From contig NZ_CANMNK010000001.1 of the NCBI RefSeq assembly GCF_947499265.1, positions 829,001-893,000 of the forward strand: 64,000 nt of DNA, in the 5' to 3' direction. Origin of the DNA: an uncultured Roseobacter sp. (lineage in GTDB: Bacteria; Pseudomonadota; Alphaproteobacteria; Rhodobacterales; Rhodobacteraceae). Under the pieces are notes generated by a model. That model ran no database searches, was not told the origin of the DNA, and saw only the letters and a list, made by a program, of their open reading frames with translations. Shown piece after piece: positions 20,680-26,989 of the stretch. Positions within the stretch are counted from its first letter, which is position 1, and each line of letters begins with the position of its first letter. Made by a program: the position numbers and the translations under genes.

Positions 20680-21300
20680 ATGTCAATTGAGAATCCTGCC
20701 GTCATCACGTGGCGCCCCCTAGGGCTCGATGACATTTCGAAAATCGCCAATTGGTTTTGGGACTTTCAGGATGTGGCCTTGTTTGACCGCACCTTGCCCG
20801 TGCCGACCAGCGTGGATGCGCTGCGCGAAAGCTGGTCCAAGTCGATCGAATATTCGAAGTCGCCTTGTGGTTATTGGTTCATTGCCGAGGATGAACAGGG
20901 ACAGCCTTTGGGGATCGCCGGGCTTGAATCGATTAACTATATTCAGGGGGATGCTGTCCTGCCGTTTTTCGTTGCGGAGGAATTTCGGAAAAGAGGGCTT
21001 GCCTCGGCGATGGCGGTTGCAGTGCTGGATTTGGCGTTCAAACGCCTGCGGCTGCACCGGGTCACCACCTTTTATCGGGACGACAACGCAGCAACACAAC
21101 GGGCTCTGCACAAACTGGGGTTCACGGACGAGGGCAAGTTCCGGGAAGGCTGGTTTGTCGAAGGCGAACGCAAAGATATCGTAATTGCTGGTATTCTTGG
21201 TTCAGAATGGTTAGCCAGCAGGGATCAGGTCATTGATAAAGTGATGGAATCCTGCAAGCTGTCGTTTGCGCCAACCTGTTGGAAAGAAGGTCGTGGGTAG
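20680..21300 (+). CDS. GNAT family N-acetyltransferase
   Basis: 206 residues, RimJ/RimL-like. The acetyl-CoA-binding motif A is represented by VAEEFRKRGLASAMAVAV near residues 98-115, followed by a typical motif B with LHRVTTFYRDDNAATQRALHKLGF near 127-150. The ATG follows GGGACGTGAG. The acceptor (a protein N-terminus or a small amine) cannot be told. Its stop overlaps the preferred GTG start of the adenylate cyclase gene, suggesting cotranscription. Confidence 0.85.
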   Translation: MSIENPAVITWRPLGLDDISKIANWFWDFQDVALFDRTLPVPTSVDALRESWSKSIEYSKSPCGYWFIAEDEQGQPLGIAGLESINYIQGDAVLPFFVAEEFRKRGLASAMAVAVLDLAFKRLRLHRVTTFYRDDNAATQRALHKLGFTDEGKFREGWFVEGERKDIVIAGILGSEWLASRDQVIDKVMESCKLSFAPTCWKEGRG

Positions 21301-23083
21301 CACCGAACAAACATCTGGACCACGCGAGAACCTCAGACGGCGTCTGGTGGCGATTGCTTTTGCTGATGTGGCGAATTTCAGTACGATGATGAGTGTCGAC
21401 GAAGTCGGGACGACGATTTCTGTCACCAACCGTCTGGAGAAATTCCGCGAGGCGATCCGCGCGTATTCCGGAGAATTCAAGGGGTCGGCGGGTGACAATG
21501 CGTTCATGGTGTTTGAAAGCGCCGTGGATGCCGTAACCTTTGCCATCGAGATGCAGAAAATTCTGGCGGCGGAGAACGAAGGCCTGCCGGAAGAAGAGAA
21601 GATCTGGTTCCGCTTTGGCATCAACCTTGGGGAAATCCTGGTCAGTGGTGATGAAATCACCGGTGAAAGCATCAACATTGCTGCACGGATCGAGGCCTTT
21701 GCCTCGCCCGGTCAGGTCTGTATTTCCGGCGCTGCCTATGATCACGTCTGCAACAAGCTGAAATACGGCTACGAATATCTGGGCGGTCAGGATTTCAAAA
21801 ACATCGGTCGCACGATCGACGTTTTTCAGGTGCATGAAAATCCGACAACCGCGGCGATGACGCCGGGGCTGCGCCGCAATCTTGAAAACTCCGCCGAGTT
21901 CAAGGAGCGACCCATTGCGAACCAATCCATCGTCGTGCTTCCCTTCGGATTTCAGGGCAGCAACCGGGATGATCAGTGGTTTGCCGACGGTCTGACCGAA
22001 GACGTCACCACGAACCTGTCGCGGTTTCAGGAGTTCTTTGTCATCGCGCGCGGGTCGGCGAACATGTACGCGGAGCGGTCGAAATCACCCGCACAGGCCG
22101 CACGCGAACTGGGCGTGCGCTACGCGGTGGATGGCACCGTGCGCAAGGCCGGGTCGCGCATCCGGATCACATTGCAATTGCTGGACGCTTTGCAGGACAG
22201 AACGATCTGGGGTGAACAGTACAACCGCGATGTTGAAGACATATTCGACCTGCAGGACGAGATTACGCAGATCATCGTCTCCGCAACTGCCGCGCGGATC
22301 GAAGCCACGGAACGCGACCGGATGCGTCTTTTGCCGCCCGCAAACCTCATGGCTTACGGGTTTGTCCTCAAGGGGCACCGGCATGTTTTGAAGTATACGC
22401 AGCCAGAAGTGCGTCAGGCGCGCGACCTCTATGAAAACGCGATTGGCAGCGATGCGCGCTACGCCCGCGCCTATGCTGCGAAATCCAGAACCTTCAATCT
22501 GGACTGGCGCTATGACTGGGCGGAAAAGCCGGAAGTCGCGCTTGATGACGCGCTGATTTTTGCCCGCGAAGCCATCGATCTGGATGAGGCCGACGCGCGC
22601 GGATTTGGTGAGCTTGGGTTCGCCCATCTCTATCGCAAGGAGCATGAGCCCGCGATCAACGCCTATGACCGGGCGCTAAAGCTTAATCCGAACGATGCGG
22701 ATTTGATGTCCGACATGGCGGACGCGCTGGCGCACATGGGCCGGTCAGAAGAAGCGGTCGATCTGTTGCTGAAGGCAATGCGGCTCAACCCGTTTTATCC
22801 TGATCAGTATATCTGGCACCTGGGCGGCGCGTATTTCAACCTCAAGCGCTACGAAGAGGCGATCAGCACGATCCAGACGATGCAGAACCCAACGGAAGGG
22901 CGTCGCATTCTTGCGGCGAGTTACGCGCATTTGGGCAAGGTCAAAGAGGCCGAAACCCAGGCTGATCTTGTGCGCCAGGCACACCCGAACTTTTCAGTGG
23001 ATCGCTGGGCGTCGGTGCAACCCGACTTGCATGAAGAAGACGTGCAGCACTTCCTGGATGGGTTGAAGCGCGCGGGCCTTTAA
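21293..23083 (+). CDS. Class III adenylate cyclase with TolB-like and TPR domains
   Basis: About 596 residues from a GTG at 21293 with GGAAAG six bases upstream; the longer frame begins with a TTG at 21266 inside the GNAT gene. Catalytic domain: the two metal-binding aspartates are Asp25 in FADVANFS and Asp68 in AGDNAFMVF, and SINIAARIE carries the transition-state Asn and Arg, so it appears active. Residues ~200-350 resemble the TolB-N/FlgO-like domain common in such proteins (IVVLPFGFQG, FADGLTEDVTTNLSR). TPR repeats fill ~380-590. There is no membrane segment. It probably makes cAMP in response to a partner bound by the TPR domain. Confidence 0.92.
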   Translation: MGSTEQTSGPRENLRRRLVAIAFADVANFSTMMSVDEVGTTISVTNRLEKFREAIRAYSGEFKGSAGDNAFMVFESAVDAVTFAIEMQKILAAENEGLPEEEKIWFRFGINLGEILVSGDEITGESINIAARIEAFASPGQVCISGAAYDHVCNKLKYGYEYLGGQDFKNIGRTIDVFQVHENPTTAAMTPGLRRNLENSAEFKERPIANQSIVVLPFGFQGSNRDDQWFADGLTEDVTTNLSRFQEFFVIARGSANMYAERSKSPAQAARELGVRYAVDGTVRKAGSRIRITLQLLDALQDRTIWGEQYNRDVEDIFDLQDEITQIIVSATAARIEATERDRMRLLPPANLMAYGFVLKGHRHVLKYTQPEVRQARDLYENAIGSDARYARAYAAKSRTFNLDWRYDWAEKPEVALDDALIFAREAIDLDEADARGFGELGFAHLYRKEHEPAINAYDRALKLNPNDADLMSDMADALAHMGRSEEAVDLLLKAMRLNPFYPDQYIWHLGGAYFNLKRYEEAISTIQTMQNPTEGRRILAASYAHLGKVKEAETQADLVRQAHPNFSVDRWASVQPDLHEEDVQHFLDGLKRAGL

Positions 23084-23104: not shown

Positions 23105-23593
23105 TTAGTCGTTGGCGCCGCTGATCCGGGCACCTGATACCCGCGCACCGGACACCCGAGCCCCGGAAACGCGGGCCCCTGAGACACGTGCACCCGACAC
23201 GCGGGCGCCGGAAACGCCGGCTGCGCCGTCGCCGCCCACCATGCCCAACAGCACGTCTTCAAACTTGCCCTGATCGACGTCCAAACGCACGGTTTCTTCG
23301 GTCTGCTTCACTGTCCATGCCTTCAGGCTGGCAAAGAATTTCGCGTTTTTCGGGTTTGGCCCCGGAACGGCCACAGTGTCCGCATCGACGCCGTCGTCTT
23401 TCACTGTGAACAACACAGGCGTTGGAATTTCGTAGTAGGCACCATCGTAGGTGAACCCGTAAATCCGGGCAAATTGCTTGCCTTCCTTGCTGACTGTTGA
23501 GTCCGTTTCCAGCCCCTTTTTGATGACGGCCAAGTCATCAACATTACGACCGAATAATACGATGGACTGGGAAGTATAGAGTGATTCTGACAT
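23105..23593 (-). CDS. 162-residue protein with C-terminal SGA-type pentapeptide array; candidate YcaO/TfuA substrate
   Basis: ATG at 23593 with AAGGA about nine bases upstream. Residues 1-~114 look like a compact folded or leader-like part of no recognised family (starts MSESLYTSQSIVLFG). LLGMVGGDGAAG at 115-126 is glycine-rich and links to an array at 127-162: six VSGAR units and a final ISGAN, then Asp and stop. There is no cysteine, signal peptide or membrane helix. As a pentapeptide array, ARVSG fits the loose A-x-[VL]-S-G pattern of pentapeptide-repeat beta-helices, but seven units make less than two full coils. It is the last gene of the YcaO-TfuA-protease operon, 75 bases after the protease, so it could be a precursor with repeated cores. 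Function is inferred only from context. Confidence 0.8.
   Translation of the reverse strand: MSESLYTSQSIVLFGRNVDDLAVIKKGLETDSTVSKEGKQFARIYGFTYDGAYYEIPTPVLFTVKDDGVDADTVAVPGPNPKNAKFFASLKAWTVKQTEETVRLDVDQGKFEDVLLGMVGGDGAAGVSGARVSGARVSGARVSGARVSGARVSGARISGAND
23108..23215 (-). repeat. Seven tandem 15-base codon repeats encoding [VI]SGA[RN]
   Basis: In-frame repeat at the 3' end of the 162-codon gene. The amino acids are almost invariant, but the codons vary: GTT, GTG, GTC and GTA are all used for Val, and TCC, TCG, TCA and AGC for Ser. The array has therefore diverged silently while the peptide was kept. Confidence 0.9.
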
Positions 23594-23668
23594 AATTTGT
23601 GATCCTTTGAAGAGCGAAATCTACTCTTTTCAGCCTGTTGTTTCTGTGTGTTAACCTATTCTGCTTTT

Positions 23669-24925
23669 TCAGTCCATTGGAACCATCGTCCGCACAGAAT
23701 TTGCATGGCTGTCCTTGCCCAACGGTTCGAGTTGCGGGCCAACATCGACAATCCCAATGTCGCGTATTCTGAAATTGCCGCGGATCAGACGTTCGAAGCG
23801 CCCGCCTGTGTGCTCCTGATCCACTTCGAGGAAGATATCGGCAATATCCACGAAATTCAGATCCCGCCGATCGATCTTTTGCCAGGTGTCCGCAAGATAG
23901 GTGCCCAGAATATCCCGTGCATCCAGCAGCGCCATTTTGAACTTGTCGGGATGATCGGCGTAGGCTGCGTCGAACATCTCCTGCATCACCGGGGCGTAAT
24001 CGGCGGTGGCGAGCAATGTGTCGGAAAGATCCTCCATCTCGGGTGAAATGGCCCCGTAGTCCAAGAGCATCTCGTGAAAAAGATCCACCAGAATGTCAAA
24101 GAACGCGCCGGTCAGCGGTTGCGACAAATGATGCTCCTTGACCCAGCCTTTTGCGAATTCTCCCAGACGCTTATCGTTGGCGGCGATCCTGATCTGCTTG
24201 TTTTCCGACAATTCCGCCACGCGGTTCACCGCGTTGAGCATGTAGAGATTGCCGCTGGTGTTCTCCAACAGCAGATCGACCAGCGAATTGAAATGCAGGG
24301 ACGAAATCAGTGCAACCAGATCGGCGGCGCTTTCGTGGAAACCGAAATATTCGCCCGTTACGTTGTTGGGGTCGGGGACGCCAACCTCGGAATAGATGAT
24401 CGCATGGCCCAATTCATGAGCGATGACATCGAAATTCAGGCTGAAGGGTTTCAGGCTGCCGGTGGACCGATCCCCGCCCATTTCGATGAATCCGTAGCCG
24501 GAATAGGCGTTTTCCAGCGATGGCAGGATGGTCAGTTCCAGTCGGTCATGGGTCTTGTCGCTTTGCCAGGGGATCACCCGACCGAAATAATCCTCCCAGA
24601 TGTCCATCACAAAACGAACGGTGCCAAAGAGATGCGCGGTCTCGAACTGCGGGGTCCCAGGCTCCAGGTAGTCGAAGTGGCCCTCGGCGTCCGGCATGGG
24701 CATCTCTTCGATCTCACCGGTCCAGGGCGGGGCCTGCACGTCAGAGCCATCAGGCGAGATGCCATAGGGCTGTTCCTTCCCGATCGGAAAGATTGTGTAC
24801 ATCCGGTCATCCGACGGGCCCGGCCCGAGGCTTCCGGCAGGAGATGAAACCTCGATGATTTCCGGCTCGCGGTAAGCTTCGAGAAATTGCGGTTGTGGGA
24901 AGAGTTTAAACCGCGTTCCTTGCAT
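23669..24925 (-). CDS. Thermolysin-like (gluzincin) zinc metalloprotease of the YcaO/TfuA operon
   Basis: 418 residues. HELGH at 170-174 gives two zinc ligands and the catalytic Glu; ESAAD at 198-202 supplies the third ligand Glu and the following Asp, the same ExxxD form and near-thermolysin spacing (24 residues after the second His). No signal peptide or propeptide is visible: the protein starts MQGTRFKLFPQPQF, so it is probably cytoplasmic. It lies 61 bases after tfuA and 75 bases before the repeat protein. A role in cutting the repeat protein is attractive but inferred. I could not place it in a named M4 subfamily. Confidence 0.82.
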   Translation of the reverse strand: MQGTRFKLFPQPQFLEAYREPEIIEVSSPAGSLGPGPSDDRMYTIFPIGKEQPYGISPDGSDVQAPPWTGEIEEMPMPDAEGHFDYLEPGTPQFETAHLFGTVRFVMDIWEDYFGRVIPWQSDKTHDRLELTILPSLENAYSGYGFIEMGGDRSTGSLKPFSLNFDVIAHELGHAIIYSEVGVPDPNNVTGEYFGFHESAADLVALISSLHFNSLVDLLLENTSGNLYMLNAVNRVAELSENKQIRIAANDKRLGEFAKGWVKEHHLSQPLTGAFFDILVDLFHEMLLDYGAISPEMEDLSDTLLATADYAPVMQEMFDAAYADHPDKFKMALLDARDILGTYLADTWQKIDRRDLNFVDIADIFLEVDQEHTGGRFERLIRGNFRIRDIGIVDVGPQLEPLGKDSHANSVRTMVPMD

Positions 24926-24986
24926 ATTGTCGTGGCCCCCGCCCAGTCATTCCTGCGACATGGCTATCGCATTCCCGCGCGCCCGT

Positions 24987-25775
24987 CTATTCATCCAAAA
25001 AACTGCAATCGCCAAAAAGCTGGTATGCCTCGTCCCCTGCCTCGGGAATGGCCGCGCGGGGTCGGCTCCAGGTTTTCGTGGCATTCAGCCATAGATTGGT
25101 TTCTTCGAAATGATAGTTGGGCTGGGGCGTTTCAAAATCGCCTTTTGCCAGACACGTCAGAAGGGCATGGGCGTCAATGCGTTTCTGATCGACCTCGTTT
25201 TGGTCAATCCAGCCGCGTAATTCCTGGCGCAGGGGATCGGGTATTTCCTGCGACGCCGTGGTGGCCAGGACGCTGTCCCACGTGCGGGTTTTGTAGAACT
25301 GAGATTTTGCATGGCCCGCGATCCATGCGGCCTGGTTTTGCGTGATCACCCGTGCGCATTGTGCCGCGTCAAGCGTGGCACGCACGTTCACCATCGCGAG
25401 GCTCAACTGCGGGTATCCCATCTCCTCAGGACCATGCAAAAGCGCGACTTCATCATCGTCTTCAAGGCTTTCATCGCGGTAGGCTTCGAATATCTGCCCG
25501 ATGCCGATCATGCCGAAGGCGTGCAATTCCGCTGCCCGAAGCGCACCCATGCTGGCGGCCCCAAACACTGGGATGCCTTGCGTCAGCGCCCAGAGAATTT
25601 CCTTGTGCCAGACCGACGGGGCGCCTTCGAAATACCCATCGATGATGCCGATGGCCTGTGGTCGGTCGCGAGTGGCCAGATATACATCCCCCTGTTGCAC
25701 GGGCGGGCGCAGATCAAAATCCCCAATTGACGCAAGATCGAGACCTGCGATGGACGGGCCGGCAAATATAATCAC
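24987..25775 (-). CDS. tfuA: TfuA-like protein (partner of YcaO in thioamidation)
   Basis: 262 residues with the TfuA core: FAGPSIAG at 4-11, IIDGYFEGAPSVWHKEIL near 44-61, FGAASMGALRAAEL near 71-84 and DDDEVALLHGP near 106-116. TfuA proteins, first known from the Rhizobium trifolitoxin locus, accompany YcaO enzymes that introduce thioamides, for example thioglycine in methyl-coenzyme M reductase or thioamides in peptide natural products; TfuA is thought to help deliver sulfide. The GTG start overlaps the ycaO stop as GTGA, showing coupling with it. Confidence 0.92.
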   Translation of the reverse strand: MIIFAGPSIAGLDLASIGDFDLRPPVQQGDVYLATRDRPQAIGIIDGYFEGAPSVWHKEILWALTQGIPVFGAASMGALRAAELHAFGMIGIGQIFEAYRDESLEDDDEVALLHGPEEMGYPQLSLAMVNVRATLDAAQCARVITQNQAAWIAGHAKSQFYKTRTWDSVLATTASQEIPDPLRQELRGWIDQNEVDQKRIDAHALLTCLAKGDFETPQPNYHFEETNLWLNATKTWSRPRAAIPEAGDEAYQLFGDCSFLDE

Positions 25776-26989
25776 GGTGCATGTCCCCGCCGCGCGCGTT
25801 CGCCCATGATATAGGCGTCATCGTCATGTGGGGCTTCCAGTCCGGGGATGATGACGCGGACCACGGGAATGCCGAATTCCTCTCGCGTCAGATCAACGAC
25901 GGCAATTTCGTCAATCCCCACTGCAGACAGCCGCGCCTTGAGCCAGGTCAGATCCGCCTGCAAGGTCTCGTTTATCGCGCCGGGCAATGTCTCGAAACGG
26001 CGCATCCCGGTCTGGTCGGTCAGAAGGTCCGCAAAGGCGTCGATCTTCTGCTGGCGCCCCTCGCTGCTGAATTCGTCATGAAAGAGATCCTCGCGCGCGC
26101 CGGTGATGTAATTGAGCCGGGTTTGCGCCGCCTCATTCAACGCGCGGTTTAGGGCGATGGCGGGATCCGGATGCGTACCGGAGCCGAGACCGAGATGCCC
26201 TTCCGGCGACCCCGCTTCGTGGATGACGCAGAGCAGGCTCGCCACGCCAACATCGGTGGTCACGTCCCACAGCGCGCACCTAAAACCAGCCTCGTGGAAT
26301 TTGCCAAGTGTTTTGCGCGCGACGGCCTCGGTGACCGACGCAGGGTCAAGCCGCGTTGCGCGTTGCGCGTCCTGCGGCAAATGGTGCCAAACCGCCAGGG
26401 CATCGCGTTCAATCACCTCGCAGATGGCGTGGCAGATCGCCTCCAGCGGATGGTTCCCGGAGGCCAGCCCATTGGTGCTCGCCGGGAAATATCCGGTGTC
26501 CTGTGACGCGGGATGGGTGTAATCGGCGTGCACCATCTCAAGCGGCACCAGCTTTTGCGTATCGCTCATTAGATCGGTGGCCATCACCCAATGCATCCGC
26601 AGGGTTCGCCGTGGGATTGGCCCGGGCGTTTGGGGCAGGCGTGCTAGATCAATGAAATCGTGCTTGTCCGAAAGATCGACCGCGCTCGCGTAGAACACGG
26701 CACGATCAAAATGCTCCGCATGCCAAATTTCAATCGCTTCCATGAGCGCGGATGCCTTGGCGTGATCGTATGTCGCCCCCTTGCCTTGCGAGATCGCAAT
26801 GGAGCGTGCGTTGGGGCGGATGGCGATGGCAACCGGCACGGAGATCCGGTCCAGCCCGGTGACATTGGCGACGCGCGTGATCCCGAAGTCATGCATCATC
26901 GGAACGATGCGTGCGAGTGTTTCCTGAGCGGTGCAAATGCGATGCGATCCCTTCAGCAATTGTTTGTCACTGCTGTCCTGGAAATCCAT
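25772..26989 (-). CDS. ycaO: YcaO-like ATP-dependent peptide backbone-modifying enzyme
   Basis: About 405 residues from the ATG at 26989; a TTG at 27085 opens the frame but adds 32 residues without family similarity. After a short lead, SHRICTAQETLARI and GITRVANVTGLDRISVPV match the start of TfuA-associated YcaO proteins. ATP/Mg2+ motifs follow: SALMEAIEIWHAE, STNGLASGNHPLEA, CEVIERDALAVW, GSGTHPDPAIALNRAL and NEAAQTRL, and ITGAREDL. YcaO enzymes use ATP to phosphorylate an amide oxygen and then add a nucleophile; with TfuA the product is expected to be a thioamide. There is no fused E1-like or ocin-ThiF domain and no dehydrogenase nearby, which argues against an azole-type cluster. Confidence 0.93.
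   Translation of the reverse strand: MDFQDSSDKQLLKGSHRICTAQETLARIVPMMHDFGITRVANVTGLDRISVPVAIAIRPNARSIAISQGKGATYDHAKASALMEAIEIWHAEHFDRAVFYASAVDLSDKHDFIDLARLPQTPGPIPRRTLRMHWVMATDLMSDTQKLVPLEMVHADYTHPASQDTGYFPASTNGLASGNHPLEAICHAICEVIERDALAVWHHLPQDAQRATRLDPASVTEAVARKTLGKFHEAGFRCALWDVTTDVGVASLLCVIHEAGSPEGHLGLGSGTHPDPAIALNRALNEAAQTRLNYITGAREDLFHDEFSSEGRQQKIDAFADLLTDQTGMRRFETLPGAINETLQADLTWLKARLSAVGIDEIAVVDLTREEFGIPVVRVIIPGLEAPHDDDAYIMGERARRGHAP

What the first reader, a model, noticed from the sequence alone, without database searches (positions are those of the whole stretch)
23105..26989. YcaO-TfuA-gluzincin-repeat protein operon: candidate thioamidated RiPP-like system
Four minus-strand genes lie in a row: YcaO, TfuA (GTGA overlap), a thermolysin-like HExxH protease with no signal peptide, and a 162-residue protein ending in seven [VI]SGA[RN] units. 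YcaO plus TfuA is the established pair for peptide thioamidation, and precursors with repeated cores are known for other TfuA-associated clusters. There is no azole dehydrogenase, E1-like partner or exporter in the set. Inference: the repeat protein is the modified substrate and the protease acts on it. The N-terminal part is unusually long for a leader, so a modified structural protein is an alternative.
Basis: partly seen in the sequence, partly recalled or inferred. Interest (0 to 1): 0.9.

Follow-up and report, generated by a model that had tools for sequence, protein, structure and literature searches.

The report
Thioamide peptide operon with repeat precursor
Marine and soil alphaproteobacteria carry a conserved gene set that looks built to swap oxygen for sulfur in the backbone of a repeated protein tail and cut it into small peptides, beside a gene for a cyclic-nucleotide signal enzyme; this would be a new family of modified peptides.

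Summary
In detail: YcaO, TfuA (4-bp overlap), a HExxH protease without visible signal peptide and a 162-aa protein ending in six VSGAR and one ISGAN lie in a row. The set recurs: of 28 named loci with leader domain plus tail, 27 carry YcaO-TfuA-protease in this order (the 28th is a 3.5-kb contig); of 35 loci sharing only the tail motif, none does. The same folded leader carries other repeat units elsewhere (VSGAK, YSGGKA, GANVR, GMNV, RAVMAS, LVGRSD, 7-mers); AlphaFold leaves the tail disordered. Best reading: a RiPP-like pathway in which YcaO-TfuA thioamidates repeated cores on an unusually large leader, the thermolysin-fold protease releases units, GNAT caps them, and the product is tied to cyclic-nucleotide signalling. 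Chemistry, cleavage and signalling are inferred. Against: in six of six Rhizobium plasmids of one type, cyclase, protease and leader protein stand together without adjacent YcaO-TfuA; one locus lacks YcaO, two lack the protease. New variant of a known kind.

The parts
25772..26989 (-). YcaO, predicted ATP-dependent backbone-activating enzyme
   Evidence: PF02624 3.2e-80; nearest solved structure MJ1094 (6pe3) 2.7e-37; best NCBIfam match is the McrA-glycine thioamidation YcaO, below its cut-off
24987..25775 (-). TfuA, predicted thioamidation partner; GTGA overlap with YcaO
   Evidence: PF07812 2.4e-47; 6xp8 TfuA-domain protein 4.5e-31
23669..24925 (-). Thermolysin/fungalysin-fold gluzincin without visible signal peptide, predicted core-releasing protease
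24404..24418 (-). HELGH zinc-binding motif of the gluzincin
   Evidence: residues 170-174
23231..23593 (-). Leader domain of the repeat protein (residues 1-121)
   Evidence: beta-rich in the AlphaFold model, block means 80-89 over residues 41-100 and 69-72 over 101-120; found with many other tails
23111..23215 (-). Repeat core: six VSGAR + ISGAN (residues 127-161)
   Evidence: block means 44-48 in the AlphaFold model
21266..23083 (+). Class III nucleotidyl cyclase-TPR, convergent, conserved neighbour
   Evidence: PF00211 and TPR; adjacent in 24 of 28 named loci
20680..21300 (+). GNAT acetyltransferase; overlaps the cyclase reading frame as listed; conserved neighbour
   Evidence: PF13302 7.6e-18; 23 of 28 named loci

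Best explanation
A RiPP-like thioamidation pathway. The 162-aa protein is a precursor: a folded ~120-aa leader domain plus a disordered tail of repeated pentapeptide cores. YcaO (ATP) with TfuA (sulfur delivery) puts thioamides into the backbone of the VSGAR units. The thermolysin-fold protease then cuts before the hydrophobic first residue of each unit, freeing short thioamidated Arg peptides. The neighbouring GNAT probably N-acetylates them, as thiovarsolins are N-acetylated, and the adjacent class III cyclase links the pathway to cyclic-nucleotide signalling, as its regulator or as the sensor of the product. Shown here by sequence: operon, order, leader/core architecture, selection on the core, protease fold and zinc ligands, conserved GNAT and cyclase. 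Inferred: thioamide formation and its site, cleavage, acetylation, signalling.
For: Co-occurrence: 27 of 28 named leader+tail loci have TfuA and protease with YcaO (26 full, 1 cut by a contig end); 0 of 35 tail-only loci from the same scan have YcaO or TfuA; 19 of 19 wider genome loci (4 repeat named ones). Class-wide the protease was found in 12 of 385 genomes; the 8 strong hits (E under 1e-79) all sit beside TfuA, 7 of 8 near YcaO, 7 of 8 have a leader protein next (8th is a contig end); the 4 weak hits have none of these in the flanks held. Variable repeats on one leader: period 5 in 213, 7 in 12, 4 in 1, not significant in 3 of 229 proteins, 6-mers in L111, L112, L140, L142. Core type follows the YcaO tree. 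Tail units 94% vs leader 45% identical with 69% of tail third positions different, 29 loci (tail identity inflated, see full report). Tail disordered. Protease fold and zinc ligands. All 41 unit types contain V/L/I/M/F and G, 36 contain R/K/H. YcaO-TfuA with the precursor suffices to thioamidate the repeated APR core of thiovarsolin, which is N-acetylated (passages of PMC6511847).
Against: No mass or chemical data. In 6 of 6 Rhizobium records examined (L109, L110, L182-L185; SRSGG tails) cyclase, protease and leader protein lie together with no YcaO/TfuA in 6-kb flanks; TfuA is elsewhere on the replicon in 1 of 6, other replicons of these strains not searched. About 49 listed plasmid rows have a protease of similar identity (48-51%), so this branch may be common. 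L139 (GMNV core) has TfuA and protease but no YcaO found in 19 kb; Paracoccus L108 and L156 lack the protease. The leader varies more than the VSGAR core, the reverse of most RiPP families (recalled). Most tails also fit a pentapeptide-repeat pattern. No exporter at a fixed place. GNAT and cyclase are in a separate convergent unit, and the window-type GNAT was not found in the clusters with other repeat units (VSGAK clusters have it). A published survey lists Nif11-like precursors for TfuA clusters of genera that include Ruegeria, a different substrate proposal.
Confidence: 0.55

Rival explanations
1. The repeat protein is a thioamidated structural or regulatory protein that acts intact (as McrA does), and the protease serves its turnover or is regulatory.
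For: Large folded leader domain; VSGAR core nearly invariant while the leader drifts; YcaO and TfuA score best against McrA-modifying models; no exporter among nine window genes; Rhizobium keeps leader protein, protease and cyclase without adjacent YcaO/TfuA.
Against: Leader carries many different repeat units of length 4 to 7; tail predicted disordered; thermolysin-fold protease conserved beside it.
Confidence: 0.28
2. The tail is a short pentapeptide-repeat beta-helix and YcaO/TfuA act on something else.
For: Weak PF00805 match (E 0.0056, 16.7 bits under the 20.2 cut-off); 4 of 23 leader proteins match PF00805 at E up to 0.1; units such as ANVRG fit the A(N/D)LxG pattern (recalled); 213 of 229 tails have period 5.
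Against: Homologues have 4-, 6- and 7-residue units; tail pLDDT mostly under 50 with a single bridge residue; tail-only repeat loci never have YcaO/TfuA, 0 of 35.
Confidence: 0.1
3. The YcaO installs another backbone change (azoline, amidine) instead of a thioamide.
For: YcaO proteins are chemically diverse (established knowledge); Ser is present in VSGAR.
Against: TfuA present in 27 of 28 and 19 of 19 loci; units such as ANVRG lack Cys/Ser/Thr; no dehydrogenase or E1-like partner among nine window genes.
Confidence: 0.05

Closest known systems
Thiovarsolin pathway (varA, varY, varT, varO; Streptomyces varsoviensis)
   Same: YcaO-TfuA pair with a repeated core; short Arg-containing, N-acetylated product; its transporter gene was not needed for production (passages of PMC6511847)
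   Different: There no protease gene is in the cluster and precursors were sought in a 20-120 aa window; here a ~120-aa folded leader, a gluzincin, a conserved GNAT and cyclase, and no heme-oxygenase-like gene among the nine window genes tested
McrA-glycine thioamidation YcaO/TfuA of methanogens
   Same: Nearest NCBIfam models and nearest solved YcaO; TfuA partner
   Different: Scores below both equivalog cut-offs (248.6 vs 365; 209.2 vs 235.2 bits); the substrate candidate is a repeat protein
TfuA-related clusters of Proteobacteria in the global mining of PMC8120280
   Same: YcaO-TfuA clusters in Alphaproteobacteria, Rhizobium with over 500 (results section, parts 1 and 2 of 3 read)
   Different: Precursors there were predicted with RiPPER, whose default window is 20-120 aa (the settings used in that survey were not checked), so a 162-310 aa precursor would be passed over; Nif11-like precursors are named for genera including Ruegeria; 'protease', 'pentapeptide', 'repeat' and 'cyclase' do not occur in its main text, supplements not seen
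Pentapeptide-repeat proteins (PF00805)
   Same: Unit register A-R-V-S-G resembles A(N/D)LxG; databases name several homologues 'pentapeptide repeat-containing'
   Different: Below the Pfam cut-off, tail disordered in the model, 4-/6-/7-mer homologues, YcaO-TfuA context
Thermolysin/fungalysin (M4/M36) proteases
   Different: Below the Pfam M4 cut-off, no secretion signal seen; 'thermolysin' does not occur in a review of RiPP leader proteases (passages of PMC10885120)

Membership tests
YcaO-TfuA thioamidated RiPP | Adjacent ycaO and tfuA | tested here: met
YcaO-TfuA thioamidated RiPP | Precursor gene with conserved leader and separate core beside the pair | tested here: met
   leader conserved over differing repeat cores; a sequence pattern only
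YcaO-TfuA thioamidated RiPP | Thioamide in the product | not testable with these tools
   needs mass spectrometry
YcaO-TfuA thioamidated RiPP | Core released from leader by proteolysis | not testable with these tools
   protease gene conserved, activity unknown
Thiovarsolin type | Repeated core on the precursor | tested here: met
Thiovarsolin type | Heme-oxygenase-like VarO gene in the cluster | tested here: not met
   none among nine window genes between 20680 and 30909; genes further off not tested
McrA-glycine thioamidation YcaO/TfuA | NCBIfam equivalog cut-offs | tested here: not met
   TIGR03266 248.6 < 365; NF033432 209.2 < 235.2 bits
Pentapeptide-repeat protein PF00805 | Pfam gathering score | tested here: not met
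   16.7 < 20.2 bits
Pentapeptide-repeat protein PF00805 | Quadrilateral beta-helix | tested here: inconclusive
   AlphaFold tail block means 44-48 on a 28-row alignment; a prediction only
M4/M36 gluzincin | HExxH plus downstream Glu ligand in a thermolysin fold | tested here: met
M4/M36 gluzincin | Pfam M4 gathering score | tested here: not met
   14.1 < 22.4 bits

The most novel reading that the evidence does not exclude
A peptide-to-cyclic-nucleotide circuit: protease-resistant thioamidated, N-acetylated repeat peptides made by YcaO-TfuA, gluzincin and GNAT are the ligands that switch the TPR or AAA part of the neighbouring class III cyclase, a Gram-negative counterpart of TPR-peptide signalling in Firmicutes (recalled). 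It would explain why two different cyclase architectures (cyclase-TPR, cyclase-AAA) accompany the pathway across core types, and why Rhizobium keeps cyclase, protease and leader protein together even without adjacent YcaO-TfuA.
Probability: 0.25. Interest if true: 0.95.

Novelty: new variant of a known kind. Interest (0 to 1): 0.8.

Why it matters
It names the likely substrate of a group of alphaproteobacterial YcaO-TfuA pairs, one that short-ORF precursor searches would pass over, and gives a catalogue of natural repeat cores (467 profile hits). It would add a thermolysin-fold protease and a ~120-aa folded leader to RiPP biology, and it ties backbone thioamidation to class III nucleotidyl cyclases, giving a testable lead on what the peptides are for.

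Tried and rejected

Rows left out of counts: the order-wide search listed 63 of 390 genomes, but by match position only 27 carry the leader domain; the other hits are tail-like repeats, mostly in longer frames. P0107 (no tail) was left out. L139 has no YcaO and so is not in the tree; L028 and L031 were left out of that tree as cut by contig ends.

Full report
Observation. YcaO and TfuA overlap by GTGA. The protease has HELGH and ESAAD and no signal peptide visible by eye. The 162-aa protein ends in six VSGAR, one ISGAN and D. Among the six VSGAR units, 58 of 58 nucleotide differences are at third codon positions; units differ by 3.87 bases per pair against 4.29 for independent draws from local codon usage, so the repeats are old and kept by selection on the protein.

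Homologues. A protein search found 142 relatives; a profile of diverse leaders found 467; the best 120 were listed each time. A scan of named genomes with the family alignment gave 63 loci. 28 encode the leader domain with the tail; 27 of them have TfuA and the protease, with YcaO (26 complete, L028 cut by the contig end), in the same order; the 28th (L031) is a 3.5-kb contig that begins inside the gene. The other 35 loci share only a tail-like motif and 0 of 35 has YcaO, TfuA or the protease in the stretch held. Both groups came from one scan by tail patterns, so the contrast is not built in. In 390 genomes of the order, 27 carry the leader domain and the protease is adjacent in 27 of 27; for 19 of these, wider stretches were taken and 19 of 19 have YcaO, TfuA, protease and leader protein (four duplicate named loci). 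TfuA itself was found in 13 of 295 family genomes, five of which (L119-L123) show neither protease nor leader protein.

Different cores. A class-wide search with the protease hit 12 of 385 genomes. The 8 strong ones all have TfuA, 7 have YcaO (L139 has none in 19 kb), and 7 have a leader protein directly downstream (G656 is a contig end). The four weak hits have none of these in the flanks held. These leaders carry other tails: GMNV x4 (L139), RAVMAS repeats (L140), LVGRSD x4 (L142), a poly-basic tail (L138) and a single HRGG(K/R)L-type tail (L141); family genomes add YSGGKA x5 (L111, L112), VSGAK (L115, L116) and single tails (L113, L114, L117, L118); plasmids add GMS(V/M)-type (L108, L156), SRSGG (L109, L110) and others (L145-L148). 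The leader match of L140 is the weakest (E 2e-6). Of 229 collected proteins, the tail period is 5 in 213, 7 in 12, 4 in 1 and not significant in 3; this list is the best-scoring part of two searches and holds close relatives. Core type follows the YcaO tree of 76 rows: 12 changes (least possible 9) against 40.2 in shuffles, 0 of 200 as low; relatedness contributes, so this shows association, not recognition.

Conservation. In the window and 28 named loci (406 pairs) the leader averages 45% identity (minimum 29%), the tail units 94% (minimum 80%), while 69% of tail third positions differ. Two caveats: the loci were fetched by tail patterns and the units were picked by a pattern, so the tail identity is inflated; the third-position divergence and the purely third-position differences in the window are not affected by this and show purifying selection on the core.

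Two missed genes. A class III nucleotidyl cyclase-TPR gene runs convergently towards the repeat gene in 24 of 28 named loci (48-92% identity) and 18 of 19 of L158-L176. The GNAT beside it is present in 23 of 28 and 18 of 19; it is missing wherever the cyclase is missing, and in L040, which is cut there. In L108, L111 and L112 a different GNAT lies next to the cyclase. In clusters with other cores the gene upstream of YcaO is a ~1000-aa protein with cyclase and AAA_16 domains (7 of 9 tested both by Pfam, 2 of 9 AAA only in the part held). With one cyclase profile, 24 of 28, 19 of 21 and 17 of 19 leader-protein loci are positive (60 of 68; 64 distinct), against 6 of 13 YcaO-TfuA loci without a leader protein and 0 of 35 tail-only loci. 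The profile was built from the window and seven of the tested loci, which Pfam had identified first. The tail-only loci come mostly from other phyla, so genome density is the better control: 6 cyclases in the 5.23-Mb own genome, and 2 to 27 in 14 others chosen because they carry the system. The own genome has 7 further matches to this cyclase, the next best at 33% identity.

Mechanism. YcaO-TfuA pairs thioamidate McrA (passages, PMC5589413) and the repeated core of thiovarsolin, whose N-acetylated thio-APR peptides were made with precursor, YcaO and TfuA alone (passages, PMC6511847). By analogy VSGAR units are the modified sites; the Ala before Arg is a guess from thiovarsolin's Pro-Arg thioamide. 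Thermolysin-type enzymes cut before hydrophobic residues (recalled); each of the 41 unit types holds V, L, I, M or F, which is compatible but weak evidence. The GNAT would supply the N-acetyl cap that the thiovarsolin authors ascribed to an endogenous enzyme. The cyclase could sense the product or control the pathway; in Azospirillum (L150) and Paracoccus (L156) a Crp/Fnr gene also lies close.

Counter-evidence. Of 130 plasmid records with the protease I looked at 11. Four (L145-L148) have YcaO, TfuA and a leader protein; in one (Nostoc L144) none of these was found; six Rhizobium records (L109, L110, L182-L185) have, in a row, a cyclase, the protease and an SRSGG-tailed leader protein but no YcaO/TfuA in 6-kb flanks. 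TfuA occurs elsewhere on the same replicon in 1 of these 6; other replicons were not searched. About 49 listed rows have a protease of the same identity range, so this branch may be common. Either modification there comes in trans, or these leader proteins work unmodified. L139 lacks YcaO and Paracoccus L108/L156 lack the protease. No exporter sits at a fixed place. Nothing here is chemical proof.

Verdict. In the ten paper searches made I saw no description of it; most preprints and subscription papers are not in that library.

Noticed in passing
L109, L110, L182-L185 (Rhizobium plasmids): Cyclase, protease and an SRSGG-tailed leader protein in a row without adjacent YcaO/TfuA; in the five annotated stretches biotin-carboxylase-type genes follow downstream.
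   Followed up: partly
L030 7207-8517 and other Ruegeria-type loci: TfuA frames are about 432-454 aa there against 262 in the window; in the one tested (L030) the extra C-terminal part matches no Pfam family.
   Followed up: partly
L158-L173, L030-L039: All units of a tail switch together between VSGAK and VSGAR among close Ruegeria relatives, more than once on the YcaO tree.
   Followed up: partly
L144 5965-7227 (Nostoc plasmid): A 44% identical protease with no TfuA or leader protein found, near radical SAM and ferritin-like genes and a PAP2/chloroperoxidase-like gene.
   Followed up: no
L149, L150, L156: Crp/Fnr regulator genes next to or near YcaO-TfuA (annotated in L150 and L156; in L149 judged by eye from the frame).
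   Followed up: no
P0107: A leader-domain protein with a peptidoglycan-binding domain (PF01471, precomputed) and no repeat tail in the record.
   Followed up: no
L018 10490-11224: About 730 extra bases separate the repeat gene from the cyclase, unlike the other Roseobacter loci.
   Followed up: no
L154 (Sinorhizobium meliloti 1021 pSymB): A TfuA match with no YcaO match in 5-kb flanks.
   Followed up: no
L022, L025, L032 (same as L161): Four-gene operon present but both GNAT and cyclase not found, so the two neighbours come and go as a unit.
   Followed up: partly
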